Shown piece by piece: positions 14,879 to 58,705 of a stretch of DNA of 64,000 nucleotides (the first letter of the stretch is position 1; each line of letters starts with the position of its first letter). The position numbers were made by a program, and so were the translations under genes. Origin of the DNA: Theocolax elegans. Taxonomy: Eukaryota > Arthropoda > Insecta > Hymenoptera > Cerocephalidae. Under the pieces are notes generated by a model. That model was not told the DNA's origin. It was given only the letters and a program-made list of their open reading frames with translations, and made no database searches. Location of the stretch: positions 39,262,118 through 39,326,117 of the forward strand of contig CM047425.1 of the NCBI GenBank assembly GCA_026168455.1, written 5' to 3'.

Positions 14879-14886
14879 TGACAAAA
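14879..14886 (+). repeat. Left 8-bp target-site duplication of the foldback element
   Basis: TGACAAAA, identical to 56787-56794. Confidence 0.8.
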
Positions 14887-15058
14887 ATGATACTGAAGTT
14901 CACATCGTTCGTAACGAACGAAAATCGAAAAAAAAAATTTTTTTTATAAATAAAAAAAAAAGCTAAATCTGCACTAAATATAAACTGTTGTAGGTAAAAA
15001 ATAGATATATATATATCATAATATAGTCCCAGGGCCCAATGAACACACAATAATCGCA
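14887..15058 (+). repeat. Left terminal inverted repeat, unique (non-satellite) part
   Basis: About 172 bases precede the first monomer. They contain a nested palindrome, CGTTCGT-A-ACGAACG, 20 bases from the tip; an A-tract/T-tract/A-tract run (14927-14970); a (TA) run; and CCCAGGGCCC. The first partial satellite monomer follows without a gap at ~15059. Confidence 0.85.
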
Positions 15059-16199
15059 TTTCCGAGAAACGAAAAATTCGTACGGGTTTATAAATGATTT
15101 ACCTAGCATGAAACCAAATCGATTGTACTTTACTAAAGTAGAGAAGGTTAAAAAAAAATTAAGAAAGATTTCTACCGTACCATTTTTTTGCAATGGGCCT
15201 GTAAATGGACAATTTTAGTCGTTTTCCAAGCAATTTAAAAAATTTCGAGGAACAAAAAATTCGCACGGGTTTATAAATCATTTACCTAGCAAGAAACCAA
15301 ATCGATTGTACTTTAATAAGGTAGAGAAGGTTACAAAAAAATTATAAACGATTTCTACCGTACCATTTTTCTGCAGTGGGCCTGTAAATGGACAATATTA
15401 GTCGTTTTCCAAGCAATTTTAAAAATTTCAAGGAACAAAAAATTCGTACGGCCTTATAAATCATTTACCTAGCACGAAACCTAATCGATTGTACTTTAAT
15501 AAGGTAGAGAAGGTTACAAAAAAATTATAAACGATTTCTACCGTACCATTTTTCTGCAGTGGGCCTGTAAATGGACAATTTTAGTCGTTTTCCAAGCAAT
15601 TTAAAAAATTTCGAGGAACAAAAAATTCGTACGGGTTTATAACTCATTTACCTAGCACGAAACCTAATCGATTGTACTTTAATAAGGTAGAGCAGGTTAC
15701 AAAAAAATTATAAACGATTTCTACCGAACCATTTTTCTGCAGTGGGCCTATAAAGGGACATTTCTAGTCGTTTTGCAAGCAATTTGAATAATTCCAAGGA
15801 ACAAAAAATTCGCACGGGTTTATAAATCATTTACCTAGCACGAAACCAAATCGATTGTACTTTAATAAGGTAGAGAAGGTTACAAAAAAATTAAAAAAGA
15901 TTTCTACCGTACCATTTTTCTGTAGTGGGCCTGTAAATGGACAATTTTAGTCGTTTTCCAAGCAATTTTAAAAATTTCAAGGAACAATAAATTCGTACGG
16001 GCTTATAAATCATTTACCTAGCACGAAAACGAATCAATTGTACTTTAATAAGGTAGAGAAGGTTACAAAAAAATTATAAACGATTTCTACCGTACCATTT
16101 TTCTGCAGTGGGCCTATAAAGGGACAATTCTAGTCGTTTTCCAAGCTATTTAAATAATTCCAAGGAACAAAAAATTCGTACGGGTTTATAAATCATTTA

Positions 16200-17100
16200 C
16201 CTAGCACGAAACCAAATCGATTGTACTTTACTAAGGTAGAGAAGGTTACAAAAAAATTACGAAAGATTTCTACCGTACCATTTTTTTGCAATGGGCCTAT
16301 AAAGGGACATTTTCAGTCGTTTTTCTAGCAATTTGAAAAAATTTCGAGGAACAAAAAATTCTTACGGGTTTCTAAATGATTTACCTAGCACGAAACCAAA
16401 TCGATTGTACTTTAATAAGGTAGAGAAGGTTACAAAAAAATTATAAACGATTTCTACCGTACCGTTTCTTTTCAGTGTGCCAATAAAGGGACATTTCCAC
16501 CGTTTCCCAATCAACTTTGAAAAATTTCGCGGAACAAAAAATTCGCACGGGCTTATAAATCATTTACCTAGCACGAAACCTAATCAATTGTACTTTAATA
16601 AGGTAGAGAAGGTTACAAAAAAATTATAAACGATTTCTACCGTACCATTTTTCTGCAGTGGGCCTATAAAGGGACAATTCTAGTCGTTTTCCAAGCAATT
16701 TAAATAATTCCAAGGAACAAAAAATTCTTACGGGTTTATAAATCATTTACCTAGCACGAAACCAAATCGATTGTACTTTACTAAGGTAGAGAAGGTTACA
16801 AAAAAATTAAGAAAGATTTCTACCGTACCATTTTTTTGCAATGGGCCTATAAAGGGACATTTTCAGTCGTTTTTCTAGCAATTTGAAAAAATTTCGAGGA
16901 ACAAAAAATTCTTACAGGTTTCTAAATGATTTACCTAGCACGAAACCAAATCGATTGTACTTTAATAAGGTAGAGTAGGTTACAAAAAAATTATAAACGA
17001 TTTCTACCGTACCGTTTCTTTTCAGCGTGCCAATAAAGGGACATTTCCGCCGTTTCCCAATCAACTTTGAAAAATTTCGAGGAACAAAAAATTCGCACGG
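16200..17100 (+). repeat. Three-monomer (~547-bp) higher-order repeat in satellite B
   Basis: The distinctive run TTTTTCTAGCAATTTGAAAA followed by TTCTTACGGGTTTCTAAATG recurs at about 16320 and 16867, with the intervening monomers also matched (TATAAACG type, CAGTG(T)GCCAATAAAG type, then the AAGAAAG type). Confidence 0.7.
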
Positions 17101-20100
17101 GTTTATAAATCATTTACCTAGCACGAAACTAAGTCGATTGTACCTTACCAAGGTAGAGAAGGTTAGAAAAAAATTATAAACAATATCTACCGTACCATTT
17201 TTTTGCAATGAGCCTATAAAGGGACATTTTCAGACGTTTTCCTAGCAATTTGAAAAATTTCGAGGAACAAAAAATTCGTACGGGTATATAAATGATTTAC
17301 CTAGCACGAAACCAAATCAATTGTACTTTACTAAGGTAGAGAAGGTTACAAAAAAATTAAGAAAGATTTCTACCGTACCATTTTTTTGCAATGGGCCTAT
17401 AAATGGACATTTCCGCCGTTTTCTAGCAATTTGAAAAATTTCGAGGAACAAAAAATTCGCACGGTTTATAAATCATTTACCTAGCACGAAACTAATCGAT
17501 TGTACTTTAATGAGGTAGAGAAGGTTACAAAAAAATTATAAACGATTTCTACCGTACCATTTTTCTGCAGTGGGCCTATAAAGGGACAATTCTAGTCGTT
17601 TTCCAAGCAATTTGAATAATTCCAAGGAACAAAAAATTCGTACGGGTTTATAAATCATTTACCTAGCACGAAACCAAATCGATTGTACTTTACTAAGGTA
17701 GAGAAGGTTACAAAAAAATTAAGAAAGATTTCTACCGTACCATTTTTTTGCAATTGGGCCTATAAAGGGACATTTTCAGATCGTTTTTCTAGCAATTTGA
17801 AAAAATTTCGAGGAACAAAAAATGTCGTACGGGTTTCTAAAGAGTTACCTAGCACGAAACCAAATCGATTGTACTTTACTAAGGTAGAGAAGGTTACAAA
17901 AAAATTATAAACGATTCTACCGTACCATTTTCTGCAGTGGGCCTATAAAGGGACAATTCTAGTCGTTTTCCAAGCAATTTGAATAATTCCAAGGACAAAA
18001 AATTCGTACGGGTTTATAATCATTTACCTAGCACGAAACCAAATCGATTGTACTTACTAAGGTAGAGAAGGTTACAAAAAAATTAAGAAAGATTTCTACC
18101 GTACCATTTTTTTGCAATGGGCCTATAAAGGGACATTTTCAGACGTTTTTCTAGCAATTTGAAAAAATTTCGAGGAACAAAAAATTCTTACGGGTTTCTA
18201 AATGAATTACCTAGCACGAAACCAAATCGATTGTACTTTAATAAGGTAGAGAAGGTTACAAAAAAATTATAAACGATTTCTACCGTACCGTTTTTCTGCA
18301 GTGGGCCTGTAAATGGACAATTTTAGTCGTTTTCCAAACAATTTAAAAAATTTCAAGGAACAAAAAATTCGTACGGGTTTATAAATCATTTACCTAGCAC
18401 GAAACCTAATCGATTGTACTTTAATGAGGTAGAGAAGGTTACAAAAAAATTATAAACGATTTCTACCGTACCATTTTTCTGCAGTGGGCCTATAAAGGGA
18501 CAATTCTAGTCGTTTTCCAAGCAATTTGAATAATTCCAAGGAACAAAAAATTCGTACGGGTTTATAAATCATTACCTAGCACGAAACCAAATCGATTGTA
18601 CTTTAATAAGGGTAGAGAAGGTTACAAAAAAATTATAAACGATTTCTACCGTACCGTTTCTTTTCAGTGTGCCAATAAAGGGACATTTCCGCCGTTTCCC
18701 AATCAACTTTGAAAAATTTCGAGGAACAAAAAATTCGCACGGGCTTATAAACCATTTACCTAGCACGAAACCTAATTAATTGTACTTTAATAAGGTAGAG
18801 AAGGTTACAAAAAAATTATAAACGATTTCTACCGTACCATTTTTCTGCAGTGGGCCTATAAAGGGACAATTCTAGTCGTTTTCCAAGCAATTTAAATAAT
18901 TCCAAGGAACAAATAATTCGTACGGGTTTATAAATCATTTACCTAGCACGAAACCAAATCGATTGTACTTTACTAAGGTAGAGAAGGTTACAAAAAAATT
19001 ATAAACGATTTCTACCGTACCATTTTTCTGCAGTGGGCCTGTAAAGGGACAATTTTAGTCGTTTTCCAAGCAATTTAAAAAATTTCGAGGAACAAAAAAT
19101 TCGTACGGGTTTCTAAATGATTACCTAGCACGAAACCAAATCGATTGTACTTTAATAAGGTAGAGAAGGTTACAAAAAAATTATAAACGATTTCTACCGT
19201 ACCATTTTTCTGCAGTGGGCCTATAAAGGGACAATTTAGTCGTTTCCAAGCAATTTAAAAATTTCGAGGAACAAAAAATTCGTACGGGTTATAAATCATT
19301 TACCTAGCACGAAACCTAAATCGATTGTACTTTAATAAGGTAGAGAAGGTTACAAAAAAATTATAAACGATTTCTACCGTACCATTTTTCTGCAGTGGGC
19401 CTGTAAATGGACAATTTTAGTCGTTTTCCAAGCAATTTGAAAAATTTCGAAGGAACAAAAAATTCGTACGGTTTATAAATCATTACCTAGCACGAAACCA
19501 AATCGATTGTACTTTAATAAGGTAGAGAAGGTTACAAAAAAATTATAAACGATTTCTACCGTACCATTTTTTTGCAGTGGGCCTATAAATGGACAATTCT
19601 AGTCGTTTTCCAAGCAATTTGAATAATTTCCGAGGAACAAAAAATTCGCACGGGTTTATAAATCTTTACCTAGCACGAAACCAAATCGATTGTACTTTAC
19701 TAAGGTAGAGAAGGTTACAAAAAAATTATAAACGATTTCTACCGTACCATTTTTTTGCAGTGGGCCTATAAAGGGACAATTTCTAGTCGTTTTCCAAGCA
19801 ATTTGAAATAATTCCGAGGAACAAAAAATTCGCACGGGTTTATAAATCATTTACCTAGCACGAAACCAAATCGATTGTACTTTACTGAAGGTAGAGAAGG
19901 TTACAAAAAAATTATAAACGATTTCTACCGTACCATTTTTCTGCAGTGGGCCTATAAAGGGACAATTCTAGTCGTTTTCCAAGCAATTTGAATAATTCCA
20001 AGGAACAAAAAATTCGCACGGGTTTATAAATCATTTACCTAGCACGAAACCAAATCGATTGTACTTTACTAAGGTAGAGAAGGTTACAAAAAAATTATAA

Positions 20101-23100
20101 ACGATTTCTACCGTACCATTTTTCTGCAGTGGGCCTATAAAGGGACAATTTAGTCGTTTTTCCTAGCAATTTGAAAAAATTTCGAGGAACAAAAAATTCT
20201 CACGGGTTTATAAATGCATTTACCTAGCACGAAACCAAATCGATTGTACTTTAATAAGGTAGAGAAGGTTACAAAAAAATTATAAACGATTTCTACCGTA
20301 CCATTTTTCTGCAGTTGGGCCTGTAAATGGACATTTTAGTCGTTTTCCAAGCAATTTAAAAATTTCAAGGAACAAAAAATTCGTACGGGTTTATAAATCA
20401 TTTACCTAGCACGAACCTAATCGATTGTACTTTAATAAGGTAGAGCAGGTTACAAAAAATTATAAACGATTTCTACCGTACCATTTTTTTTGCAGTGGGC
20501 CTATAAAGGGACAATTCTAGTCGTTTTCCAGCAATTTGAATAATTCAAGAACAAAAAATTCGCACGGGTTTATAATCATTTACCTAGCAAGAAACCAAAT
20601 CGTTGTACTTTATAAGGTAGAGAAGGTTACAAAAAATTATAAACGATTTCTACCGTACCATTTTTTGCAGTGGGCCTATAAAGGGACATTTCCTAGTCGT
20701 TTTGCCAAGCAATTTTGAAAAATTCGAGGAACAAAAAATTCGCACGGTTTATAAATCATTTACCTAGCAAGAACCAAATCGATTGTACTTTAATAAGGTA
20801 GAGAAGGTTACAAAAAAAATTATAAACGATTTCTACCGTAACCATTTTTCTGCAGTGGGCCTATAAAGGGACAATCTAGTCGTTTTCCAAGCAATTTAGA
20901 AAATTCCAAGGAACAAAAATTCGACGGTTATAAATCATTACCTAGCACGAAACCAAATCGATTGTACTTTAATATGGAGAGAAGGTTACAAAAAAATTAT
21001 AAACGATTTCTACCGGTACCATTTTTCTGCAGTGGGCCTGTAAATGGACAATTTTAGTCGTTTCCAAGCAATTTAAAAAATTTCGAGGAACAAAAAATTC
21101 GTACGGGTTTATAACTCAGTTACCTAGCACAAACCTAATCGATTGTACTTTAATAGGTAGAGCAGGTTACAAAAAATTATAAACGATTTCTACCGTACCA
21201 TTTTTTGCAGTGGGCCTATAAAGGGACATTTCTAGTCGTTTGCAAGCAATTTGAAATAATTCCAAGGAACAAAAAATTCGCACGGGTTTATAAATCATTT
21301 ACCTAGCACGAAACCAAATCGATTGTACTTTAATAAGGTAGAGAAGGTTACAAAAAAAATTATAAACATTTCTACCGTACCGTTTCTTTTCAGTGTGCCA
21401 ATAAAGGGACATTTCCGCCGTTTCCCATCAACTTTGAAAAATTTCGAGGAACAAAAAATTCGTACGGGTTTATAAATCATTTACCTAGCACGAAACCTAA
21501 TCGATTGTACTTTAATAAGGTAGAGAAGGTTACAAAAAAATTATAAACGATTTCTACCGTACCATTTTTCTGCAGTGGGCCTATAAAGGGACATTTCTAG
21601 TCGTTTTCCAAGCAATTTGAATAAATTCCAAGGAACAAAAAATTCGTACGGGTTTATAAATCATTTACCTAGCACGAAACCAAATCGATTGTACTTTAAT
21701 AAGGTAGAGAAGGTTACAAAAAAATTATAAACGATTTCTACCGTACCATTTTTCTGCAGTGGGCCTGTAAAGGGACAATTTTAGTCGTTTTCCAAGCAAT
21801 TTGAAAAATTTCGAGGAACAAAAAATTCGTACGGGTTTATAAATCATTTACCTAGCACGAAACCTAATCGATTGTACTTTAATAAGGTAGAGAAGGTTAC
21901 AAAAAAATTATAAACGATTTCTACCGTACCATTTTTCTGCAGTGGGCCTATAAAGGGACAATTTCTAGTCGTTTTCCAAGCAATTTGAATAATTCCAAGG
22001 AACAAAAAATTCGCACGGGTTTATAAATCATTTACCTAGCACGAAACCAAATCGATTGTACTTTAATAGGTAGAGAAGGTTACAAAAAATTATAAACGAT
22101 TCTACCGTACCATTTTTCTGCAGTGGGCCTATAAAGGGACAATTCTAGTCGTTTTCCAAGCAATTTGAATAATTCCAAGGAACAAAAAATTCGTACGGGT
22201 TTATAAATCATTTACCTAGCACGAAACCTAAATCGATTGTACTTTAATAAGGTAGAGAAGGTTACAAAAAAATTATAAACGATTTCTACCGTACCATTTT
22301 TCTTGCAGTGGCCTATAAAGGGACAATTTCTAGTCGTTTTCCAAGCAATTTGAAAATTTCCGAGGAACAAAAAATTCGCACGGGTTTATAAATCATTTAC
22401 CTAGCACGAAACCAATCGATTGTACTTTAATAAGGTAGAGAAGGTTACAAAAAAATTATAAACGATTTCTACCGTACCATTTTCTGCAGTGGGCCTAGTA
22501 AATGGACAATTTAGTCGTTTTCCAAGCAATTTTAATAATTCAAGGAACAAAAATTCGTACGGGTTTATAAATCATTTACTAGCACGAAACCAATCGATTG
22601 TACTTTAATAAGGTAGAGAAGGTTACAAAAAAATTATAAACGATTTCTACCGTACCATTTTTCTGCAGTGGGCCTGTAAATGGACAATTTTAGTCGTTTT
22701 TCCAAGCAATTTAAAAATTTCGAGGAACAAAAAATTAGTACGGGTTATAAATGATTTACCTAGCACGAAACCAAATCGATTGTACTTTAATAAGGTAGAG
22801 AAGGTTACAAAAAAATTATAAACGATTTCTACCGTACCATTTTTCTGCAGTGGGCCTATAAATGGACAATTTCTAGTCGTTTTCCAAGCAATTTAAAAAT
22901 TTCGAGGAACAAAAATTCGCACGGGTTTATAAATCATTTACCTAGCACGAAACCAAATCGATTGTACTTTACTAAGGTAGAGAAGGTTACAAAAAATTAT
23001 AAACGATTTCTACCGTACCATTTTTCTGCAGTGGGCCTGTAAATGGACAATTTTAGTCGTTTTCCAAGCAATTTTAAAAATTTCGAGGAACAAAAAATTC

Positions 23101-26100
23101 GTACGGGTTTATAAATCATTTACCTAGCACGAAACCTAATCGATTGTACTTTAATAAGGTAGAGAAGGTTACAAAAAAATTATAAACGATTTCTACCGTA
23201 CCATTTTTCTGCAGTGGGCCTATAAAGGGACAATTTCTAGTCGTTTTCCAAGCAATTTAAATAATTCCAAGGAACAAAAAATTCGTACGGGTTTATAAAT
23301 CATTTACCTAGCACGAAACCTAATCGATTGTACTTTACTAAGGTAGAGAAGGTTACAAAAAAATTATAAACGATTTCTACCGTACCATTTTTCTGCAGTG
23401 GGCCTATAAAGGGACAATTTTAGTCGTTTTCCAAGCAATTTGAAAAATTTCGAGGAACAAAAAATTCGTACGGGTTTATAAATCATTTACCTAGCACGAA
23501 ACCAAATCGATTGTACTTTAATAAGGTAGAGAAGGTTACAAAAAAATTATAAACGATTTCTACCGTACCATTTCTTTGCAGTGGGCCTAATAAGGGACAA
23601 TTTCTAGTCCGTTTCCCAAGCAACTTTGAAAATTCCAGGAACAAAAAATTCGCACGGGTTATAAATCATTTACCTAGCACGAAACCTAATCGAATTGTAC
23701 TTTAATAAGGTAGAGAAGGTTACAAAAAAATTATAAACGATTTCTACCGTACCATTTTTCTGCAGTGGGCCTATAAAGGGACAATTCTAGTCGTTTTCCA
23801 AGCAATTTAAATAATTCCAAGGAACAAAAAATTCGTACGGGTTTATAAATCATTTACCTAGCACGAAACCAAATCGATTGTACTTTACTAAGGTAGAGAA
23901 GGTTACAAAAAAAATTAAGAAAGATTCTACCGTACCATTTTTTCTGCAGTGGGCCTATAAATGGACAATTTTCAGTCGTTTTTCCTAGCAATTTAAAAAT
24001 TCGAGGAACAAAAATTCTTACGGGTTTATAAATCATTTACCTAGCACGAAACCAAATCGATTGTACTTTAATAAGGTAGAGAAGGTTACAAAAAAATTAT
24101 AAACGATTTCTACCGTACCATTTTTCTGCAGTGGGCCTATAAAGGGACATTTCTAGTCGTTTTCCAAGCAATTTGAAAAATTTCGAGGAACAAAAAATTC
24201 GCACGGGTTTATAAATCATTTACCTAGCACGAAACCAAATCGATTGTACTTTAATAAGGTAGAGAAGGTTACAAAAAAATTATAAACATATTCTACCGTA
24301 CCATTTTTCTGCAGTGGGCCTATAAAGGGACAATTTAGTCGTTTTCCAAGCAATTTAAAAATTTCGAAGGAACAAAAAATTCGTACGGGTTTATAAATCA
24401 TTTACCTAGCACGAAACCTAATCGATTGTACTTTAATAAGGTAGAGAAGGTTACAAAAAAATTATAAACGATTTCTACCGTACCATTTTTCTGCAGTGGG
24501 CCTATAAAGGGACATTCTAGTCGTTTTCCAAGCAATTTGAATAATTCCAAGGAACAAAAAATTCGCACGGGTTTATAAATCATTTACCTAGCACGAAACC
24601 AAATCGATTGTACTTTACTAAGGTAGAGAAGGTTACAAAAAATTATAAACGATTCTACCGTACCATTTTTCTGCAGTGGGCCTATAAAGGGACAATTTAG
24701 TCGTTTTCCAAGCAATTTGAAAAATTTCGAGGAACAAAAAATTCGCACGGGTTTATAAATCATTTACCTAGCACGAAACCTAATCGATTGTACTTTAATA
24801 AGGTAGAGAAGGTTACAAAAAAATTATAAACGATTTCTACCGTACCATTTTTCTGCAGTGGGCCTATAAAGGGACAATTCTAGTCGTTTTCCAAGCAATT
24901 TGAATAATTCCAAGGAACAAAAAATTCGTACGGGTTTATAAATCATTTACCTAGCACGAAACCTAATCGATTGTACTTTAATAAGGTAGAGAAGGTTACA
25001 AAAAAATTATAAACGATTTCTACCGTACCATTTTTCTGCAGTGGGCCTATAAAGGGACATTTTCTAGTCGTTTTCCAAGCAATTTGAATAATTTCCAAGG
25101 AACAAAAAATTCGCACGGGTTTATAAATCATTTACCTAGCACGAAACCAAATCGATTGTACTTTACTAAGGTAGAGAAGGTTACAAAAAATTATAAACGA
25201 TTTCTACCGTACCATTTTTCTGCAGTGGGCCTGTAAATGGACAATTTTAGTCGTTTTCCAAGCAATTTAAAAAATTTCGAGGAACAAAAAATTCGTACGG
25301 GTTTATAACTCATTTACCTAGCACGAAACCTAATCGATTGTACTTTAATAAGGTAGAGCAGGTTACAAAAAAATTATAAACGATTTCTACCGTACCATTT
25401 TTCTGCAGTGGGCCTATAAAGGGACATTTCTAGTCGTTTTGCAAGCAATTTGAATAATTCAGAGGAACAAAAAAATTCGTACGGTTTATAAATCATTTAC
25501 CTAGCACGAAACCTAAATCGATTGTACTTTAATAAGGTAGAGCAGGTTACAAAAAAATTATAAACGATTTCTACCGTACCATTTTTCTGCAGTGGGCCTA
25601 TAAGGGACAATTCTAGTCGTTTTCCAAGCAATTTGAATAATTCCAAGGAACAAAAAATTCGTACGGGTTTATAAATCATTTACCTAGCACGAAACCAAAT
25701 CGATTGTACTTTACTAAGGTAGAGAAGGTTACAAAAAAATTATAAACGATTTCTACCGTACCATTTTTCTGCAGTGGCCTATAAAGGGACATTTCTAGTC
25801 GTTTTCCAAGCAATTTGAAAAATTCGAGGAACAAAAATTCGTACGGGTTTATAAATGCATTTACCTAGCACGAAACCAAATCGATTGTACTTTACTAAGG
25901 TAGAGAAGGTTACAAAAAAATTATAAACGATTTCTACCGTACCATTTTTCTGCAGTGGGCCTATAAAGGGACAATTCTAGTCGTTTTCCAAGCAATTTAA
26001 ATAATTCCAAGGAACAAAAAATTCGTACGGGTTTATAAATCATTTACCTAGCACGAAACCAAATCGATTGTACTTTACTAAGGTAGAGAAGGTTACAAAA

Positions 26101-41859: not shown

Positions 41860-42480
41860 TACCATTTTTTTGCAATGAGCCTATAAAGGGACATTTTCAG
41901 ACGTTTTCCTAGCAATTTGAAAAATTTCGAGGAACAAAAAATTCGTACGGGTATATACATGATTTACCTAGCACGAAACCAAAACAATTGTACTTTACTA
42001 AGGTAGAGAAGGTTACAAAAAAATTATAAACGATTTCTACCGTACCATTTTTCTGCAGTGGGCCTATAAAGGGACAAATCTAGTCGTTTTCCAAGCAATT
42101 TAAATAATTCCAAGGAACAAAAAATTCGTACGGGTTTATAACTCATTTACCTAGCACGAAACTTAATCGATTGTACTTTAATAAGATAGAGCAGGTTACA
42201 AAAAAATTATAAACGATTTCTACCGTACCATTTTTCTGCAGTGGGCCTATAAAGGGACATTTCTAGTCGTTTTGCAAGAAATTTGAAAAATTTCGAGGAA
42301 CAAAAAATTCGTACGGGTATATACATGATTTACCTAGCACGAAACCAAAACAATTGTACTTTACTAAGGTAGAGAAGGTTACAAAAAAATTATAAACGAT
42401 TTCTACCGTACCATTTTTCTGCAGTGGGCCTATAAAGGGACAAATCTAGTCGTTTTCCAAGCAATTTAAATAATTCCAAG
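41860..42480 (+). repeat. Two-monomer (364-bp) tandem duplication in satellite B
   Basis: The rare variant GGGTATATACATGATTTACC followed by AAACCAAAACAATTG occurs at ~41949 and ~42313, each time followed by the rare GGGACAAATCTAGTCG. Confidence 0.7.
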
Positions 42481-44899: not shown

Positions 44900-47800
44900 A
44901 CGAAACCAAATGGATTGTACTTTACTAAGGTAGAGAATGTTACAAAAAAATTAAGAAAGATTTCTACCGTACCATTTTTTTGCAATGGGCCTATAAATGG
45001 ACATTTCCGCCGTTTTCCAAGCAACTTTGAAAAATTTGGAGGAACAAAAAATTCGCACGGGTTTCTAAATGATTTACCTACTACGAAACCAAATCGATTG
45101 TACTTTACTAAGGTAGAGAAGGTTACAAAAAAATTATAAACAATATCTACCGTACCGTTTTTAAGCAGTGGGCCTATAAATGGCCATTTTCAGTCGTTTT
45201 CCTAGCAATTTGAAAAATTTCGAGGAACAAAAAATTCGCACGGGTTTATAAATCATTTACCTAGCACGAAACTAAGTCGATTGTACCTTACCAAGGTAGA
45301 GTAGGTTACAAAAAAATTATAAACAATATCTACCGTACCGTTTTTTTTCAGTGTGCCAATAAAGGGACATTTCCGCCGTTTCCCCATCAACTTTGAAAAA
45401 TGTCGAGGAACAAAACATTCGCACGGGTTTATAAATCATTTACCTAGCACGAAACTAAGTCGATTGTACCTTACCAAGGTAGAGAAGGTTACAAAAAAAT
45501 TATAAACAATATCTACCGTACCATTTTTTTGCAATGAGCCTATAAAGGGACATTTTCAGCCGTTTTCATAGAAATTTGAAAAATTTCGAGGAACAAAAAA
45601 TTCGCACGGGTTTATAAATCATTTACCTAGCACGAAACCAAATGGATTGTACTTTACTAAGGTAGAGAAGGTTAAAAAAAAATTAAGAAAGATTTCTACC
45701 GTACCATTTTTTGCAATGGGCCTATAAATGGACATTTCCGCCGTTTCCAAGCAACTTTGAAAAATTTCGAGGAACAAAAAATTCGTACGGGTATATAAAT
45801 AATTTACCTAGAACGAAACCAAATCCATTGTGCTTTACTAAGGTAGAGAAGGTTACAAAAAAATTAAGAAAGATTTCTACCGTACCATTTTTTTGCAATG
45901 GGCCTATAAATGGACATTTCCGCCGTTTTCCAAGCAACTTTGAAATATTTCGAGGAACAAGAATTCGCACGGGTTTATAAATCATTTACCTAGCACGAAA
46001 CTAAGTCAATTGTACCTTACCAAGGTAGAGAAGGTTACAAAAAAATTATAAACAAAATCTACCGTACCATTTTTTGCAATGGGCCTATAAAGGGACATTT
46101 TCAGACGTTTTTCTAGCAATTTGAAAAATTTCGAGGAACAAAAAATTTGCACGGGTTTATAAATCATTTACCTAGCACGAAACCAAATGGATTGTACTTT
46201 ACTAAGGTAGAGAATGTTACAAAAAAATTAAGAAAGATTTCTACCGTACCATTTTTTTGCAATGGGCCTATAAATGGACATTTCCGCCGTTTTCCAAGCA
46301 ACTTTGAAAAATTTCGAGGAACAAAAAATTCGCACGGGTTTATAAATCATTTACCTAGCACGAAACCAAATGGATTGTACTTTACTAAGGTAGAAAAGGT
46401 TAAAAAAAAATTATAAACAATATCTACCGTACCGTTTTTAAGCAGTGGGCCTATAAATGGACATTTCTAGTCGTTTTGCAAGCAATTTGAATAATACCAA
46501 GGAACAAAAAAGTCGCACGGGTTTATAAATCATTTACCTAGCACGAAACCAAATGGATTGTACTTTACTAAGGTAGAGAAGGTTACAAAAAAATTATAAA
46601 CGATTTCGACCGTACCGTTTTTTTTCAGTGTGCCAATAAAGGGACATTTCCGCCGTTTCCCCATCAACTTTGAAAAATTTTCGAGGAACAAAAAATTCGC
46701 ACGGGTTTATAAATCATTTACCTAGCACGAAACTAAGTCGATTGTACCTTACCAAGGTAGAGAAGGTTACAAAAAAATTATAAACAATATCTACCGTACC
46801 ATTTTTTTGCAATGAGCCTATAAAGGGACATTTTCGTACGGGTATATAAATGATTTACCTAGCACGAAACCAAATCAATTGTACTTTACTAAGATAGAGA
46901 ATGTTACAAAAAAATTAAGAAAGATTTCTACCGTACCATTTTTTTGCAATGGGCCTATAAATGGACATTTCCGCCGTTTTCCAAGCAACTTTGAAAAATT
47001 TCGAGGAACAAAAAATTCGCACGGGTTTCTAAATGATTTACCTACTACGAAACCAAATCGATTGTACTTTACTAAGGTAGAGAAGGTTACAAAAAAATTA
47101 TAAACAATATCTACCGTACCGTTTTTAAGCAGTGGGCCTATAAATGGCCATTTTCAGTCGTTTTCCTAGCAATTTGAAAATTTCGAGGAACAAAAAATTC
47201 GCACGGGTTTATAAATCATTTACCTAGCACGAAACTAAGTCGATTGTACCTTACCAAGGTAGAGTAGGTTACAAAAAATTATAAACAATATCTACCGTAC
47301 CGTTTTTTTTTCAGTGTGCCAATAAAGGGACATTTCCGCCGTTTCCCCATCAACTTTGAAAAATGTCGAGGAACAAAACATTCGCACGGGTTTATAAATC
47401 ATTTACCTAGCACGAAACTAAGTCGATTGTACCTTACCAAGGTAGAGAAGGTTACAAAAAATTATAAACAATATCTACCGTACCATTTTTTTGCAATGAG
47501 CCTATAAAGGGACATTTTCATAGAAATTTGAAAAATTTCGAGGAACAAAAAATTCGCACGGGTTTATAAATCATTTACCTAGCACGAAACCAAATGGATT
47601 GTACTTTACTAAGGTAGAGAAGGTTAAAAAAAAATTAAGAAAGATTTCTACCGTACCATTTTTTTGCAATGGGCCTATAAATGGACATTTCCGCCGTTTT
47701 CCAAGCAACTTTGAAAAATTTCGAGGAACAAAAAATTCGTACGGGTATATAAATAATTTACCTAGAACGAAACCAAATCCATTGTGCTTTACTAAGGTAG

Positions 47801-50800
47801 AGAAGGTTACAAAAAAATTAAGAAAGATTTCTACCGTACCATTTTTTTGCAATGGGCCTATAAATGGACATTTCCGCCGTTTTCCAAGCAACTTTGAAAT
47901 ATTTCGAGGAACAAAGAATTCGCACGGGTTTATAAATCATTTACCTAGCACGAAACTAAGTCAATTGTACCTTACCAAGGTAGAGAAGGTTACAAAAAAA
48001 TTATAAACAAAATCTACCGTACCATTTTTTTGCAATGGGCCTATAAAGGGACATTTTCAGACGTTTTTCTAGCAATTTGAAAAATTTCGAGGAACAAAAA
48101 ATTTGCACGGGTTTATAAATCATTTACCTAGCACGAAACCAAATGGATTGTACTTTACTAAGGTAGAGAATGTTACAAAAAAATTAAGAAAGATTTCTAC
48201 CGTACCATTTTTTTGCAATGGGCCTATAAATGGACATTTCCGCCGTTTTCCAAGCAACTTTGAAAAATTTCGAGGAACAAAAAATTCGCACGGGTTTATA
48301 AATCATTTACCTAGCACGAAACCAAATGGATTGTACTTTACTAAGGTAGAAAAGGTTAAAAAAAATTATAAACAATATCTACCGTACCGTTTTTAAGCAG
48401 TGGGCCTATAAATGGACATTTCTAGTCGTTTTGCAAGCAATTTGAATAATACCAAGGAACAAAAAAGTCGCACGGGTTTATAAATCATTTACCTAGCACG
48501 AAACCAAATGGATTGTACTTTACTAAGGTAGAGAAGGTTACAAAAAAATTATAAACGATTTCGACCGTACCGTTTTTTTTCAGTGTGCCAATAAAGGGAC
48601 ATTTCCGCCGTTTCCCCATCAACTTTGAAAAATTTCGAGGAACAAAAAATTCGCACGGGTTTATAAATCATTTACCTAGCACGAAACTAAGTCGATTGTA
48701 CCTTACCAAGGTAGAGAAGGTTACAAAAAAATTATAAACAATATCTACCGTACCATTTTTTTGCAATGAGCCTATAAAGGGACATTTTCGTACGGGTATA
48801 TAAATGATTTACCTAGCACGAAACCAAATCAATTGTACTTTACTAAGATAGAGAATGTTACAAAAAAATTAAGAAAGATTTCTACCGTACCATTTTTTTG
48901 CAATGGGCCTATAAATGGACATTTCCGCCGTTTTCCAAGCAACTTTGAAAAATTTCGAGGAACAAAAAATTCGTACGGGTATATAAATAATTTACCTAGA
49001 ACGAAACCAAACCAAATCCATTGTGCTTTACTAAGGTAGAGAAGGTTACAAAAAAATTAAGAAAGATTTCTACCGTACCATTTTTTTGCAATGGGCCTAT
49101 AAATGGACATTTCCGCCGTTTTCCAAGCAACTTTGAAATATTTCGAGGAACAAAGAATTCGCACGGGTTTATAAATCATTTACCTAGCACGAAACTAAGT
49201 CAATTGTACCTTACCAAGGTAGAGAAGGTTACAAAAAAATTATAAACAAAATCTACCGTACCATTTTTTTGCAATGGGCCTATAAAGGGACATTTTCAGA
49301 CGTTTTTCTAGCAATTTGAAAAATTTCGAGGAACAAAAAATTTGCACGGGTGTATAAATCATTTACCTAGCACGAAACCAAATGGATTGTACTTTACTAA
49401 GGTAGAGAATGTTACAAAAAAATTAAGAAAGATTTCTACCGTACCATTTTTTTGCAATGGGCCTATAAATGGACATTTCCGCCGTTTTCCAAGCAACTTT
49501 GAAAAATTTCGAGGAACAAAAAATTCGCACGGGTTTATAAATCATTTACCTAGCACGAAACCAAATGGATTGTACTTTACTAAGGTAGAAAAGGTTAAAA
49601 AAAATTATAAACAATATCTACCGTACCGTTTTTAAGCAGTGGGCCTATAAATGGACATTTCTAGTCGTTTTGCAAGCAATTTGAATAATACCAAGGAACA
49701 AAAAAGTCGCACGGGTTTATAAATCATTTACCTAGCACGAAACCAAATGGATTGTACTTTACTAAGGTAGAGAAGGTTACAAAAAAATTATAAACGATTT
49801 CGATTGTACCGTTTTTTTTCAGTGTGCCAATAAAGGGACATTTCCGCCGTTTCCCCATCAACTTTGAAAAATTGCGAGGAACAAAAAATTCGCACGGGTT
49901 TATAAATCATTTACCTAGCACGAAACTAAGTCGATTGTACCTTACCAAGGTAGAGAAGGTTACAAAAAAATTATAAACAATATCTACCGTACCATTTTTT
50001 TGCAATGAGCCTATAAAGGGACATTTTCAGCCGTTTCATATAAATTTGAAAAATTTCGAGGAACAAAAAATTCGTACGGGTATATAAATGATTTACCTAG
50101 CACGAAACCAAATCAATTGTACTTTACTAAGATAGAGAATGTTACAAAAAAATTAAGAAAGATTTCTACCGTACCATTTTTTTGCAATGGGCCTATAAAT
50201 GGACATTTCCGCCGTTTTCCAAGCAACTTTGAAAAATTTCGAGGAACAAAAAATTCGTACGGGTATATAAATAATTTACCTAGAACGAAACCAAATCCAT
50301 TGTGCTTTACTAAGGTAGAGAAGGTTAAAAAAAAATTAAGAAAGATTTCTACCGTACCATTTTATTGCAATGGGCCTATAAAGGGACATTTCCGCCGTTT
50401 TCCAAGCAACTTTGAAATATTTCGAGGAACAAAGAATTCGCACGGGTTTATAAATCATTTACCTAGCACGAAACTAAGTCAATTGTACCTTACCAAGGTA
50501 GAGAAGGTTACAAAAAAATTATAAACATAATCTACCGTACCATTTTTTTGCAATGGGCCTATAAAGGGACATTTTCAGACGTTTTTCTAGCAATTTGAAA
50601 AATTTCGAGGAACAAAAAATTTGCACGGGTTTATAAATCATTTACCTAGCACGAAACCAAATGGATTGTACTTTACTAAGGTAGAGAATGTTACAAAAAA
50701 ATTAAGAAAGATTTCTACCGTACCATTTTTTTGCAATGGGCCTATAAATGGAAATTTCCGCCGTTTTCCAAGCAACTTTGAAAAATTTCGAGGAACAAAA

Positions 50801-50950
50801 AATTCGCACGGGTTTATAAATCATTTACCTAGCACGAAACCAAATGGATTGTACTTTACTAAGGTAGAAAAGGTTAAAAAAAAATTATAAACAATATCTA
50901 CCGTACCGTTTTTAAGCAGTGGGCCTATAAATGGACATTTTCAGTCGTTT
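44900..50950 (+). repeat. Complex higher-order repeat zone in satellite B (periods ~1.24-1.96 kb)
   Basis: Blocks headed by AATTTGCACGGG(T/G)TTATAAATC recur at about 46147, 48103, 49342 and 50621. Blocks with TACTTTACTAAGATAGAGAATG recur at 46879, 48833 and 50117. Most blocks hold a monomer reading AACGAAACCAAATCCATTGTGC. Two copies (46829, 48781) carry the same internal deletion, where CATTTTC joins directly to GTACGGGTATATAAATG, and a third (~50020) keeps the longer form. The blocks therefore differ by whole-monomer gains and losses, as expected from unequal crossing-over. Confidence 0.8.
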
Positions 50951-51287
50951 TCCTGGCAATTTGAAAAATTTCGAGGAACAAAAAAATTTTTTACGGGTTT
51001 CTAAATGATTTACCTAGCACGAAACTAAATGGATTGTACTTTACTAAGGTAGAGAAGGTTAAAAAAAAATTAAGAAAGATTTCTACCGTACCATTTTATT
51101 GCAATGGGCCTATAAAGGGACATTTTCAGTCGTTTTTCTAGCAATTTGAAAAAGTTTCGAGGAACAAAAGTTCGTACGGGTATATAAATGATTTACCTAG
51201 CACGAAACCAAATCGATTGTACTTTACCAAGGTAGAGAAGGTTACAAAAAAATTATAATCGATTTCTACCGTACCATTTCTCTGCAG

Positions 51288-54200
51288 TTCCTCGAAATTT
51301 TTTCAAATTGCTAGAAAAACGACTGAAAATGTCCCTTTATTGGCACACTGCAAAAAAACGGTACGGTAGAAATCGTTTATAATTTTTTTATAACCTTCTC
51401 TACCTTAGTAAAGTACAATCCATTTGGTTTCGTGCTAGGTAATCATTTATAAACCCGTACGAATTTTTTGTTCCTCTAAATTTTTTAAATGCTTGGAAAA
51501 CGACTAAAATTGTCCATTACAGGCCCACTGCAGAAAAATGGTACGGTAGAAATCGTTTATAATTTTTTTGTAACCTTCTCTACCTTAGTAAAGTACAATC
51601 GATTTCGTTTCGTGCTAGGTAATGATTTATAAACCGTACGAATTTTTGTTCACAATCAAATAGAATTTCCTTGGAATTATTCAAATTGCTTGGTAAACGA
51701 TTAGAATTGTCCCTTTATTGGCACCCTGCAAAAAAACGGTACGGTAGAAATCGTTTATAATTTTTTTATAACCTTCTCTACCTTAGTAAAGTACAATCCA
51801 TTTGGTTTCGTGCTAGGTAAATCATTTATAAACCCGTACGAATTTTTTGTTCCTCGAAATTTTTTAAATTGCTTGGAAAACGACTAAAATTGTCCATTTA
51901 CAGGCCCACTGCAGAAAAATGGTACGGTAGAAATCGTTTATAATTTTTTTGTAACCTTCTCTACCTTAGTAAAGTACAATCGATTTCGTTTCGTGCTAGG
52001 TAAATGATTTATAAACCCGTACGAATTTTTTGTTCCACAAAATTTTTTCAAATTGCTAGAAAAACGACTGAAAATGTCCCTTTATTGGCACACTGCAAAA
52101 AAACGGTACGGTGGAAATCGTTTATAATTTTTTTGTAACCTTCGCTACCTTAGTAAAGTACAATCCATTTGATTTCGTGCTAGGTAAATGAATTATAAAC
52201 CCGTGCGAATTTTTTGTTCCTTGGAATTATTCAAATTGCTTGGTAAACGATTAGAATTGTCCCTTTATTGGCACCCTGCAAAAAAACGGTACGGTAGAAA
52301 TCGTTTATAATTTTTTTGTAACCTTCTCTACCTTAGTAAAGTACAATCCATTTGGTTTCGTGCTAGGTAAATCATTTATAAACCCGTACGAATTTTTTGT
52401 TCCTCGAAATTTTTTCAAATTGCTAGAAAAACGACTAAAAATGTCCCTTTATAGGCCCATTGCAAAGAAATGGTACGGTAGAAATCTTTCCTAATTTTTT
52501 TGTAACCTTCTCTACCTTAGTAAAGTACAATCGATTTGGTTTCGTGCTAGGTAAATGATTTATTAACCCGTGCGAATTTTTTGTTCCTTGGAATTATTCA
52601 AATTGCTTGGAAAACGACTAGAATTGTCCCTTTATAGGCCCACTGCAGAAAAATGGTACGGTAGAAATCGTTTATAATTTTTTTGTAACCTTCTATACCT
52701 TAGTAAAGTACAATCGATTTGATTTCGTGCTAGGTAAATGAATTATAAACCCGTGCGAATTTTTTGTTCCTTGGAATTATTCAAATTGCTTGGAAAACGA
52801 TTAGAATTGTCCCTTTATAGGCCCACTGCAGAAAAATGGTATGGTAGAAATCGTTTATAATTTTTTTGTAACCTTCTCTTCCTTAGTAAAGTACAATCGA
52901 TAGGTTTCCTGATAGGTAAATCATTTAGAAACCCGTAAGAATTTTTTGTTCCTTGGAATTATTTAAATTGCTTGGAAAACGGCGGAAATGTCCCTTTATT
53001 GGCACACTGCAAAAAAACGGTATGGTAGAAATCGTTTATAATTTTTTTGTAACCTTCTCTACCTTAGTAAAGTACAATCGATTTGGTTTCGTGCTAGGTA
53101 AATCATTTATAAACCCGTACGAATTTTTTGTTCCTTGAAATTTTTCAAATTACTTGGATAACGACTGTAAATGTCCCTTTATAGGCCCACTGCAAAAAAA
53201 CGGTACGGTAGAAATATTTCTTAATTGTTTTGTAACCTTCTCTACCTTATTAAAGTACAATCGATTAGGTTTCGTGCTAGGTAAATGATTTATAAACCCG
53301 TACGAATTTTTTGTTCCTCGAATTTTTTTCAAATTGCTAGAAAAACGACTGAAAATGTCCCTTTATAGGCCCATTGCAAAAAAATGGTACGGTAGAAATC
53401 TTTCTTAATTTTTTGGTAACCTTGTCTACCTTAGTAAAGTACAATCGATTCGGTTTCGTGCTAGGTAAATGATTTATAAACCCGTGCGAATTTTTTGTTC
53501 CTCGAAATTTTTCAAAGTTGCTTGGAAAACGGCGGAAATGTACCTTTATTGGCACACTGCAAAAAAACGGTACGGTAGAAATCGATTATAATTTTTTTGT
53601 AACCTTCTCTACCTTAGTAAAGTACAATCGATTTGGTATCGTGCTAGGTAAATCATTTAGAAACCCGCAAGAATTTTTTGTTCCTTGAAATTTTTTCAAA
53701 TTGCTAGAAAAACGACTAAAAATATCCGTTTATTGGCACACTGCAAAAAACGGTACGGTAGAAATCGTTTATAATTTTTTTGTAACTTTCTCTAACTTAG
53801 TAAAGTACAATCCATTTGGTTTCGTGCTAGGTAAATGATTTATAAACCCGTACGAATTTTGTGTTCCTTGGAATTATTTAAATTGCTAGGAAAACCTCTA
53901 AAATGTCCGTTTATAGGCCCACTGCAGAAAAATGGTACGGTAGAAATCGTTTATAATTTTTTTGTAACCTGCTCTACCTTATTAAAGTACAATCGATTAG
54001 GTTTCGTGCTAGGTAAATGAGTTATAAACCCGTACGAATTTATTGTTCCTCGAAATTTTTTAAATTGCTTGGAAAACTTCTAAAATTGTCCATTTACAGG
54101 CCCACTGCAGAAAAATGGTACGGTAGAAATCGTTTATAATTTTTTTGTCACCTTCTCTACCTTATTAAAGTACAATCGATTAGGTTTCGTGCTAGGTAAA

Positions 54201-56626
54201 TGATTTATAAGGCCGTACGAATTTTTTGTTCCTTGAAATTTTTAAAATTGCTTGGAAAACGACTAGAAATGTCCCTTTATAGGCCCACTGCAGAAAAATG
54301 GTACGGTAGAAATCGTTTATAATTTTTTTGTAACCTGCTCTACCTTATTAAAGTACAATCGATTAGGTTTCGTGCTAGGTAAATGATTTATAAACCCGTG
54401 CGAATTTTTTGTTCCTCGAAATTTTCAAATTGCTAGAAAAACGTCTGAAAATGTCCCTTTATAGGCCCATTGCAAAAAAATGGTACGGTAGATATTGTTT
54501 ATAATTTTTTTGTAACCTTCTCTACCTTGTTAAGGTACAATCGACTTACTTTCGTGCTAGGTAAATGATTTATAAACCCGTGCGAATTTTTTGTTCCTCG
54601 AAATTTTTCAAAGTTGCTTGGAAAACGGCGGAAATGTCCATTTATAGGCCCATTGCAAAAAAATGGTACGGTAGAAATCTTTCTTAATTTTTTTGTAACC
54701 TTCTTTACCTTAGTAAAGTACAATTGATTTGGTTTTGTGCTAGGTAAATCATTTATATACCCGTACGAATTTTTGTTCCTCGAAATTTTTCAAATTACTT
54801 GGATAACGACTAAAATTGTCCATTTACAGGCCCACTGCAGAAAAATGGTACGGTAGAAATCGTTTATAATTTTTTTGTCACCTTCTCTACCTTATTAAAG
54901 TACAATCGATTAGGTTTCGTGCTAGGTAAATGATTTATAAGGCCGTACGAATTTTTTGTTCCTTGAAATTTTTAAAATTGCTTGGAAAACGACTAGAAAT
55001 GTCCCTTTATAGGCCCACTGCAGAAAAATGGTACGGTAGAAATCGTTTATAATTTTTTTGTAACCTGCTCTACCTTATTAAAGTACAATCGATTAGGTTT
55101 CGTGCTAGGTAAATGATTTATAAACCCGTGCGAATTTTTTGTTCCTCGAAATTTTTCAAATTGCTAGAAAAACGTCTGAAAATGTCCCTTTATAGGCCCA
55201 TTGCAAAAAAATGGTACGGTAGATATTGTTTATAATTTTTTTGTAACCTTCTCTACCTTGTTAAGGTACAATCGACTTACTTTCGTGCTAGGTAAATGAT
55301 TTATAAACCCGTGCGAATTTTTTGTTCCTCGAAATTTTTCAAAGTTGCTTGGAAAACGGCGGAAATGTCCATTTATAGGCCCATTGCAAAAAAATGGTAC
55401 GGTAGAAATCTTTCTTAATTTTTTTGTAACCTTCTTTACCTTAGTAAAGTACAATTGATTTGGTTTTGTGCTAGGTAAATCATTTATATACCCGTACGAA
55501 TTTTTTGTTCCTCGAAATTTTTCAAATTACTTGGATAACGACTGTAAATGTCCCTTTATAGGCCCACTGCAAATAAACGGTACGGTAGAAATCGATTATA
55601 ATTTTTTGTAACCTTCTCTACCTTAGTAAAGTACAATTGATTTGGTTTCGTGCTAGGTAAATCATTTATATACCCGTAAGAATTTTTTGTTCCTTGGAAT
55701 TATTTAAATTGCTTGGAAAACGACTAGAATTGTCCCTTTATAGGCCCACTGCAGAAAAATGGTACGGTAGAAATCGTTTATAATTTTTTTGTAACCTTCT
55801 CTACCTTATTAAAGTACAATCGATTTGGTTTCGTGCTAGGTAAATGATTTATAAACCCGTGCGAATTTTTTGTTCCTTGGAATTATTCAAATTGCTTGCA
55901 AAACGACTAGAAATGTCCCTTTATAGGCCCACTGCAGAAAAATGGTACGGTAGAAATCGTTTATAATTTTTTTGTAACCTGCTCTACCTTATTAAAGTAC
56001 AATCGATTAGGTTTCGTGCTAGGTAAATGAGTTATAAACCCGTACGAATTTTTTGTTCCTCGAAATTTTTTAAATTGCTTGGAAAACGACTAAAATTGTC
56101 CATTTACAGGCCCACTGCAGAAAAATGGTACGGTAGAAATCGTTTATAATTTTTTTGTAACCTTCTCTACCTTATTAAAGTACAATCGATTAGGTTTCGT
56201 GCTAGGTAAATGAGTTATAAACCCGTACGAATTTTTTGTTCCTCGAAATTTTTTAAATTGCTTGGAAAACGACTAAAATTGTCCATTTACAGGCCCACTG
56301 CAGAAAAATGGTACGGTAGATATTGTTTATAATTTTTTTTTAACCTTCTCTACCTTAGTAAAGTACAATCCATTTGGTTTCGTGCTCGGTAAATGATTTA
56401 TAAACCCGTGCGAATTTTTTGTTCCTCGAAATTTTTCAAAGTTGCTAGAAAAACGACTGAAAGTGTCCCTTTATAGGCCCATTGCAAAAAAATGGTACGG
56501 TAGAAATCTTTCTTAATTTTTTTTTAACCTTCTCTACCTTAGTAAAGTACAATCGATTTGGTTTCATGCTAGGTAAATCATTTATAAACCCGTACGAATT
56601 TTTCGTTTCTCGGAAATGCGATTATT
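51288..56626 (-). repeat. Satellite B, reverse arm: ~182-bp tandem repeat, about 29 copies
   Basis: Same monomer and the same subtypes as the forward arm, but in reverse complement. The switch is at 51287/51288, where forward CTGCAG joins reversed TTCCTCGAAATT, so both flanking monomers are cut. The arm is much shorter than the forward arm (5.3 against 36.2 kb). An aberrant 17-base insertion, ACAATCAAATAGAATTT, lies at ~51652. Confidence 0.95.
54180..55650 (-). repeat. Four-monomer (731-bp) tandem duplication in the reverse arm of satellite B
   Basis: About 54120-54850 is repeated at about 54851-55580 with almost no change. The markers are TTATAAGGCCGTACG, AAACGTCTGAAAATG, TACCTTGTTAAGGTACAATC with CGACTTACTTTCG, and GGTTTTGTGCTAGG, each 731 bases apart. 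Confidence 0.8.
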
Positions 56627-56786
56627 GTGTGTTCATTGGGCCCTGGGACTATATTATGATATATATATCTATTTTTTACCTACAACAGTTTGTATGTAGT
56701 GCAGATTTAGCTTTTTTTTTTATTTATAAAAAAAATTTTTTTTTTCGATTTTCGTTCGTTACGAACGATGTGAACTTCAGTATCAT
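56627..56786 (-). repeat. Right terminal inverted repeat, unique (non-satellite) part
   Basis: Reverse complement of 14887-15058 with a few differences: a shorter TA run, small changes in tract length, and CTACATACAAACTG against CTAAATATAAACTG. The match continues into the adjoining monomers. Confidence 0.85.
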
Positions 56787-56794
56787 TGACAAAA
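56787..56794 (+). repeat. Right 8-bp target-site duplication of the foldback element
   Basis: TGACAAAA, identical to 14879-14886 and directly abutting the terminal CAGTATCAT. Confidence 0.8.
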
Positions 56795-58693: not shown

Positions 58694-58705
58694 AATTTTT
58701 ACTGA
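58694..58705 (+). repeat. Left target-site duplication of the SINE
   Basis: AATTTTTACTGA, identical to 59160-59171. Confidence 0.9.

What the first reader, a model, noticed from the sequence alone, without database searches (positions are those of the whole stretch)
14879..56794. A whole satellite array bounded by transposon ends and a target-site duplication
Satellite B is not just flanked by random DNA. Its two outer edges carry the same ~172 bases of non-satellite sequence in inverted orientation, and directly outside both lies TGACAAAA. Sequence beyond differs. The simplest reading is that a foldback transposon inserted here and its internal tandem repeats then grew to ~42 kb, or that it moved as a large unit. 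FB, Galileo and Tetris elements of Drosophila are precedents for tandem repeats inside inverted arms giving rise to satellites, but I know of none this long with both termini and the duplication intact.
Basis: partly seen in the sequence, partly recalled or inferred. Interest (0 to 1): 0.92.

Follow-up and report, generated by a model that had tools for sequence, protein, structure and literature searches.

The report
Jumping gene that became a satellite
A 42,000-base stretch of repeated DNA in what is probably an insect genome is a single inserted jumping gene whose inner repeats have grown enormously, and the same genome holds sister insertions from about 1,000 to 65,000 bases long, so the making of satellite DNA from a transposon can be followed step by step.

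Summary
Confirmed and extended. The 41,900-bp array (14887-56786) is one foldback transposon: a 172-bp cap, 199 monomers on the + strand, one strand switch at 51288/51289, 29 monomers on the - strand, the cap inverted, and TGACAAAA on both sides. No non-satellite core.

The genome is held (unnamed, 658 Mb). Of 15 cap pairs tested, 12 (window included) carry their own 8-bp duplication at exactly offset 0 (9 exact, 3 with one mismatch). These 12 run from 1.1 to 65.4 kb. A 49-kb sibling sits in a tandem repeat whose next unit is an empty site with one TGTTGGCC.

Growth after insertion is best supported: two copies of one insertion point share flank (96.5%) but their array edges are out of register; the window and a near sister share the strand-switch joint, yet three samples show no collinear array; homogeneity peaks mid-arm. 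Movement as a 42-kb unit is not excluded.

A Mutator-like transposase is the likely engine (one related end lies beside a PF20700 frame; second end not found). Tetris and Rehavkus-1_TC are precedents; size, completeness and the size series are what is new.

The window's own empty site could not be tested.

The parts
14879..14886 (+). left copy of the 8-bp target-site duplication TGACAAAA
14887..15058 (+). left terminal inverted repeat (cap), begins ATGATACTGAAGTTCACATCGTTCGTAACGAACG; no similarity to the monomer above shuffled controls
15060..51288 (+). long arm: 199 + monomers of about 183 bp; homogeneity peaks mid-arm (monomers 61-110 mean 0.953), outer 16 monomers 0.897, joint-proximal 39 monomers 0.868 (0.888 when the cut monomers are left out)
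51288..51289 (.). strand-switch joint, monomer cut at about position 135 and followed at once by the inverted arm; the same joint sequence lies in two other elements with other target duplications (and in the probable artefact C501:503819-506857)
51289..56615 (-). short arm: 29 - monomers, diverse (mean 0.892), with one 4-monomer duplication (m07-m10 / m11-m14)
56617..56786 (-). right terminal inverted repeat (cap)
56787..56794 (+). right copy of the 8-bp target-site duplication TGACAAAA

Best explanation
The array is one non-autonomous foldback DNA transposon. Shown: it has inverted caps, an 8-bp target duplication, unequal inverted arms of satellite monomers and no core, and eleven sister insertions of other sizes share caps and 8-bp duplications of their own. 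Inferred with fair support: it inserted as a shorter element of the same plan, cut and pasted by a Mutator-like (PF20700) transposase acting in trans on the caps, and then the long arm grew in place by unequal exchange or replication-based amplification of blocks of monomers, mostly in the middle of the arm, leaving caps and edges old. The two arms stay alike near the caps, probably through exchange between the arms. A satellite array is thus the late stage of a transposon insertion whose ends are still readable.
For: Caps and duplication. Of 15 cap pairs, 12 show the 8-bp duplication (9 exact, 3 with one mismatch), only at offset 0; of 210 mismatched pairings one reaches 7 of 8 or more, and it uses a duplicated flank. 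Five more elements of related subfamilies: 4 exact, one 6 of 8. Size series of the 12: 1.1, 1.4, 1.6, 4.3, 10.6, 22.2, 27.8, 30.3, 41.9, 42.8, 49.4, 65.4 kb. Interior samples of six of the large ones are satellite in 13 of 15; the other 2 hold nested foreign DNA. Empty site for the 49.4-kb copy. Growth in place: C835 and the 10.6-kb C5 copy share the same insertion nucleotide (right flank 96.5% over 680 bp, cap 97.6%), yet the outer five monomers are only 86-93% alike in register, and C835's adjacent monomers 3 and 4 match adjacent C5 monomers about 7.5 kb from its right end at 99.5%. The window and the C501 42.8-kb copy share the joint (next 183 bp 98.9% on one side, 93.4% on the other) and caps 97.5-98.9% alike, but three interior samples find no collinear stretch (best 0.966, 0.918, 0.950, off the diagonal). 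Arm lengths at the shared joint differ: 36.4/5.5, 2.7/40.1, 3.4/0.9 kb (from coordinates). Mid-arm homogeneity peak. Transposase: PF20700 frame, E 3.6e-63, 2.5 kb inside a related end, beside which a subterminal repeat is shared (85-86%) with two foldbacks of the wider family.
Against: 3 of 15 cap pairs show no duplication: C4 110-kb (5 of 8), C501 3.0-kb (probably an assembly palindrome) and C639 (contig end, nested caps). Cap sites whose partner I did not identify were not entered. The window's own empty site was never tested. The transposase-bearing element shows one end only, with no second end in 16 kb. With 674 candidate transposase places in 658 Mb, one lying 2.5 kb from one of 72 cap ends could be partly chance; among the 96 places I compared, the next nearest is 18 kb away. 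Middle monomers of the window and of C501 are closer to each other (0.917) than the window's are to five other elements (0.84-0.89; two more elements left out for too few monomers), and the two elements are of like size, as expected if a large unit had moved and was then reshuffled. Mean monomer divergence mid-arm (about 5%) exceeds cap divergence (about 1.2%), so much monomer diversity predates the insertion or was carried in. Arrays are assembled sequence and may be mis-sized.
Confidence: 0.8

Rival explanations
1. The element moved as a giant unit of about 42 kb (others up to 65 kb) and was only reshuffled later; growth mostly preceded insertion.
For: Duplications are exact on giant copies (41.9, 42.8, 65.4 kb). 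The window and C501 copies are of like size with caps 97.5-98.9% alike, and their middle monomers are closest to each other. The review of giant transposons notes that 100-200 kb cargoes have been moved in artificial constructs (PMC6431247, passages seen).
Against: No collinear stretch between the two long arms in three interior samples of 800 bases. The shared joint lies on opposite sides of the long arm, though an inversion between the arms could do that. One insertion point holds two different array edges. A homogeneity peak lies inside one arm. The same review says transposition falls off above about 6 kb.
Confidence: 0.17
2. The caps are ordinary boundary sequence of the satellite (or arose by inverted segmental duplication), and the 8-bp match is coincidence.
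For: Caps occur at many satellite edges. Some caps lie inside satellite (C639, C45). The C501 3.0-kb copy has inverted flanks instead of a duplication.
Against: 12 of 15 pairs with different duplications, at offset 0 only. Empty site for a sibling. Elements of 1.1-1.6 kb with only a few monomers per arm, whose immediate flanks are not satellite.
Confidence: 0.02
3. The engine is not Mutator-like but another superfamily with 8-bp duplications (hAT, P or an undescribed one).
For: No transposase lies between two caps of this family in anything read. The cap begins ATGATACTG, not the G/C-rich start reported for most arthropod MULEs (PMC13359780, passages seen). hAT and P also make 8-bp duplications (recalled).
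Against: A related end sits 2.5 kb from a PF20700 transposase frame and shares a subterminal repeat with foldbacks. Target duplications show no hAT-like pattern (16 sites; pattern recalled). Five of five transposase places examined have tandem arrays within about 3-7 kb.
Confidence: 0.25
4. Assembly artefact: arrays joined wrongly so that caps face each other.
For: C501:503819-506857 looks like a read-through palindrome with single-base gaps. Long satellite arrays are hard to assemble.
Against: Short copies (1.1-4.3 kb) need no long assembly and show the same plan and duplications. A wrong joint would not produce matching 8-bp flanks in 12 of 15 cases.
Confidence: 0.03

Closest known systems
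Tetris, Drosophila virilis (PMC4079207; passages seen)
   Same: Foldback element with inverted ends, a tandem repeat (TIR-220) in the arms, 8-10 bp target duplications, no transposase found; tandem repeats amplified into satellite arrays inside the element; fibre-FISH showed long arrays between two flanking domains.
   Different: Tetris had three structurally complete copies, arrays of up to 66 repeats in the assembly, a middle domain, and a 37-bp stretch shared between flanking domain and repeat. Here complete elements reach 41.9-65.4 kb (228 monomers in the window), the window copy has no middle domain, the cap shares no sequence with the monomer, and an empty site is seen.
Rehavkus-1_TC carrying satellite TCsat23, Tribolium castaneum (PMC10218199; passages seen)
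   Same: A satellite-length unit (164 bp) in the inverted ends of a DNA transposon.
   Different: [quoted passage not shown] Rehavkus makes 9-bp duplications and carries a minisatellite before the 3' end (PMC6446971, passages seen); here duplications are 8 bp and both arms are satellite.
Galileo and FB elements, Drosophila
   Same: Long inverted repeats that are internally repetitive (Galileo: abstracts in listings; FB: recalled).
   Different: Galileo belongs to the P superfamily (same abstracts); I recall none of tens of kb.
Tm1 Mutator/foldback family of root-knot nematodes (PMC3169594; title and start of abstract in listing only)
   Same: Foldback family placed in the Mutator superfamily by its title.
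   Different: Details not read.
MITE-with-satellite model, miDNA4 of Xenopus (through the review PMC12628747; passages seen)
   Same: A transposon whose internal tandem array grows and later becomes a plain satellite once its ends decay.
   Different: A Tc1/mariner MITE; here the array is in two inverted arms and the stage with ends intact is seen at many sizes.

Membership tests
Foldback (FB-like) DNA transposon | inverted termini bounding the whole element | tested here: met
Foldback (FB-like) DNA transposon | tandem repeats inside the inverted arms, arms variable in length | tested here: met
Foldback (FB-like) DNA transposon | target-site duplication at independent insertions | tested here: met
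   12 of 15 pairs; empty site of a sibling
Foldback (FB-like) DNA transposon | mobilised by a transposase | not testable with these tools
   needs an excision or insertion assay
Mutator superfamily (MULE) | 8-11 bp target duplication | tested here: met
   8 bp; range from PMC6446971 (passage)
Mutator superfamily (MULE) | Mutator-type transposase between matching ends | tested here: inconclusive
   PF20700 frame 2.5 kb inside one related end, second end not found in 16 kb; subterminal repeat shared with foldbacks
Rehavkus | 9-bp target duplication | tested here: not met
   8 bp; taking 9 bases, 0 of 15 pairs match (at most 5 of 9)
Rehavkus | minisatellite before the 3' terminus | tested here: inconclusive
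   both arms are satellite here; a 59-bp minisatellite lies right of a PF20700 transposase at C3:56.71M, but that element's ends were not reached
Tetris | sequence homology to Tetris caps or TIR-220 | not tested
   I had no Tetris sequence to compare
hAT superfamily | terminus beginning CAG-like and nTnnnnAn target pattern (both recalled) | tested here: not met
   terminus ATGATACTG; of 16 targets 3 have T at position 2 and 2 have A at position 7

The most novel reading that the evidence does not exclude
In this genome, satellites are largely the arms of Mutator-like transposons: each transposon lineage carries its own tandem unit (59 and 359, about 98/293, 213, about 245 and 263 bp near the five transposases looked at; 183 bp in the window's family, which has lost its gene), arrays spread as transposon insertions and then inflate in place by tens of kilobases. 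Both large arrays of this window would then be of that origin: satellite B (14887-56786) shown to be an insertion, satellite A (1-9894) through its relative near a transposase on C3.
Probability: 0.4. Interest if true: 0.82.

Novelty: new variant of a known kind. Interest (0 to 1): 0.66.

Why it matters
How satellites arise from transposons is usually inferred from decayed remains. Here one genome holds the stages side by side with ends intact: 1-kb foldbacks with a few monomers, and insertions of 4, 11, 22, 42, 49 and 65 kb with caps and target duplications. Each insertion is bounded, so array growth can be measured as length and sequence change since a defined event, and alleles of one insertion can be compared. 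The C835/C5 pair already suggests an array edge turning over faster than its flank. The 8-bp duplications also show that a satellite block this large can sit in the genome as a simple insertion, which matters for assembly, for annotation, and for the question of whether giant arrays can themselves move.

Tried and rejected
Rfam found nothing in the window. An exact cap pattern gave nothing in viral contigs, and a monomer-core pattern gave nothing in viral contigs or in bacterial and archaeal genome contigs (those tools may leave out the window's own genome). Cap-monomer homology: none above shuffled sequence. Collinearity of the window and C501 arrays, tested as evidence for movement as a large unit: not found in three 800-base samples. 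In-register homology between elements is clear for the cap (0.940) and monomer 1 (0.894 against 0.871 out of register) and absent or nearly so beyond (C501 3.0-kb and C639 were left out of these means). Second end of the C557 transposase element: not found in 16 kb. Caps near transposases: 1 of 72 cap ends lies within 10 kb of any of the 96 transposase places that I copied from the 148 matches (674 candidates, 147 scored). Right-flank ORF 62521-63999 as the element's own transposase: rejected, because it lies outside the duplication and has no Pfam match above cut-off. Uncapped arrays: pattern search not answered. Papers opened without a use for the argument: PMC10783647 and PMC12910113 (passages).
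Full report
What is there. A protein in the right flank has its named relatives in beetles and a parasitoid wasp, so the host is most likely an insect, though one mobile protein does not fix it. Between 14887 and 56786 lie 228 monomers of about 183 bp, 199 on the + strand and 29 on the - strand, with one switch at 51288/51289 and no other sequence beyond gaps of at most 29 bp. The outer edges are the same 172 bp inverted, 97.7% alike, and TGACAAAA stands directly outside both.

Is it an insertion? The cap was searched in the whole genome (40 scored of 66 candidates) and its first 26 bases as a pattern (62 sites, 0 for the reversed control). A looser pattern gave 72 sites, again 0 for the control. 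Many caps occur as facing pairs. For the 15 pairs that I made I compared the outer 8 bases: 9 are identical, 3 differ by one base, 3 do not match; at every other offset from -6 to +6 none of 15 reaches 7 of 8, and mismatched pairings reach it once in 210, in a pair that shares a duplicated flank. The twelve duplications differ from one another. The failures are a 110-kb pair on C4 (5 of 8), a palindromic 3.0-kb copy on C501 with single-base gaps that look like sequencing errors, and C639, whose left cap lies inside satellite near a contig end. Single caps whose partner I did not identify were not entered. Five elements of related subfamilies add four exact duplications and one of 6 in 8.

Empty site. 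The 49.4-kb copy on C2 lies in a tandem repeat of about 440 bp. The next unit, in its right flank, is uninterrupted: the joined flanks align through the joint for 341 bp at 88%, with a single TGTTGGCC. The element's own two copies read TGATGGCC and TGTTGGCC, so the left one has probably mutated.

Size series. The twelve elements with duplications measure 1.1, 1.4, 1.6, 4.3, 10.6, 22.2, 27.8, 30.3, 41.9, 42.8, 49.4 and 65.4 kb. The four shortest, read in full, are cap, a few monomers per arm and cap, up to 4.3 kb with 4 and 18 monomers. From eight large elements I read 20 samples of 800 bases: 17 are 85% or more satellite. Of the 15 that come from six of the twelve, 13 are satellite; of the 5 from the C4 110-kb pair and C639, 4 are. 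The 3 misses hold other DNA; one of them looks by eye like a retroelement integrase (not searched), and they lie in copies with the more diverged caps.

How it grew. (a) In the window's long arm the monomers are most alike in the middle (0.953 for monomers 61-110) and least alike next to the joint (0.868; 0.888 without the cut monomers) and, less so, at the outer edge (0.897). (b) The joint sequence of the window was found in two other elements with other duplications, the 42.8-kb C501 copy and the 4.3-kb C638 copy (and in the C501 palindrome), but arm lengths on its two sides are 36.4/5.5, 2.7/40.1 and 3.4/0.9 kb. The window and C501 caps are 97.5-98.9% alike, yet three interior samples of C501 have no collinear partner in the window. 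Recombination between inverted arms can flip a joint, so the side of the long arm is weaker evidence than the lack of collinearity, and three samples cover only 2.4 kb. (c) Contig C835 carries an element end at the same nucleotide as the 10.6-kb C5 copy, with 680 bp of right flank at 96.5% and caps at 97.6%; but the outer five monomers are 86-93% alike in register, and two adjacent C835 monomers match adjacent C5 monomers about 7.5 kb from its right end at 99.5%. So one insertion has two different array edges. Whether C835 is an allele or a duplicated locus is not known, and its left end was not found. Together these favour growth and turnover in place. Against: the middle monomers of the window and C501 are closest to each other (0.917; the window to five others 0.84-0.89), and mean monomer divergence exceeds cap divergence, so part of the array or its diversity was probably present before insertion. 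I put movement as a giant unit at about one in six.

Arms and ends. Within an element the two arms are alike in register over the first five monomers (0.931, 0.905, 0.893, 0.896, 0.886; 11, 11, 9, 9 and 6 elements) more than elements are to each other (0.894, 0.877, 0.874, 0.877, 0.870), as expected if arms exchange sequence near the caps. Two elements (C3 22-kb, C638) have left and right caps that group with different elements although their duplications are exact, which suggests conversion between elements or chimaeras made before insertion.

Engine. 8 bp fits Mutator-like elements (8-11 bp; PMC6446971, passage). One related end, on C557, is followed after 2.5 kb by a PF20700 Mutator-like transposase frame (E 3.6e-63); its first 40 bases match a foldback end at 97.5% and a repeat just inside it matches arms of two foldbacks with exact duplications at 85-86%. 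Its second end was not found. The genome has at least 148 such transposase matches. At five of five places looked at (picked by me from the ten best matches, not at random), a tandem array lies within about 3-7 kb: 263 bp (C557), 359 and 59 bp (C3), 98/293 bp and 245/295 bp (two places on C7), 213 bp (C6). As a control, 2 of 20 3-kb windows, some overlapping, have one, and one of these two is itself related to the C6 array. At C3:56.71M the 359-bp unit forms at least 12.5 copies left of the transposase and one inverted copy right of it, followed by a 59-bp array related to the window's satellite A. This looks like autonomous elements of the same build, but their termini were not reached.

Against what is known. 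Foldbacks seeding satellites are known: Tetris (arrays of up to 66 repeats, three complete copies; passages seen), TCsat23 in Rehavkus-1_TC (mostly five and eight monomers; passages seen), and the MITE model reviewed in PMC12628747 (passages seen). In the titles, abstract starts and passages returned by my paper searches I saw no case of complete foldback elements of tens of kb with both ends and duplication; subscription papers and preprints are not in that library. Hence a new variant of a known kind. The Rehavkus label is not given: its 9-bp duplication is not met. Mutator membership is likely but not proved.

Noticed in passing
1-9894: Satellite A: a 59-bp minisatellite with a higher-order period of about 3,650 bp (several repeat rows recur at +3,649 or +3,650). 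A related array (best matches 75-82% identical) lies right of a Mutator-like transposase at C3:56.72M.
   Followed up: partly
11960-13028: A MITE-like element in the left flank: inverted ends of about 204 bp, 88% alike.
   Followed up: no
57391-60054: Inverted repeats of 167 bp, 97.6% alike, bound about 2.66 kb in the right flank.
   Followed up: no
60211-61809: Weak remnants of a reverse transcriptase and an endonuclease on the - strand, below the Pfam cut-offs.
   Followed up: no
62521-63999: Open frame of a repeated protein family, many members about 740 aa, without a Pfam domain above cut-off; 134 relatives found (120 listed), named ones in Brassicogethes, Psylliodes and Leptopilina.
   Followed up: partly
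L011 (C501:503819-506857): A 3.0-kb copy whose two flanks are the same sequence inverted, carrying single-base gaps against the neighbouring 42.8-kb copy: a hairpin-type rearrangement or, more likely, an assembly artefact.
   Followed up: partly
L062 (C5:15.32M): An arm in which blocks of monomers and a non-satellite piece of about 1 kb are repeated together with a period of about 2.3 kb.
   Followed up: no
L014 (C639:1308), L039 (C45:10940): Caps lying inside satellite of the same strand: nested insertions or internal exchange.
   Followed up: no
L012/L013 (C3:50.62M), L016 (C638): Elements whose left and right caps group with different elements although the duplication is exact.
   Followed up: partly
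G000 genome-wide: At least 148 PF20700 transposase matches, many with long open frames; tandem arrays of different units near all five places looked at.
   Followed up: partly
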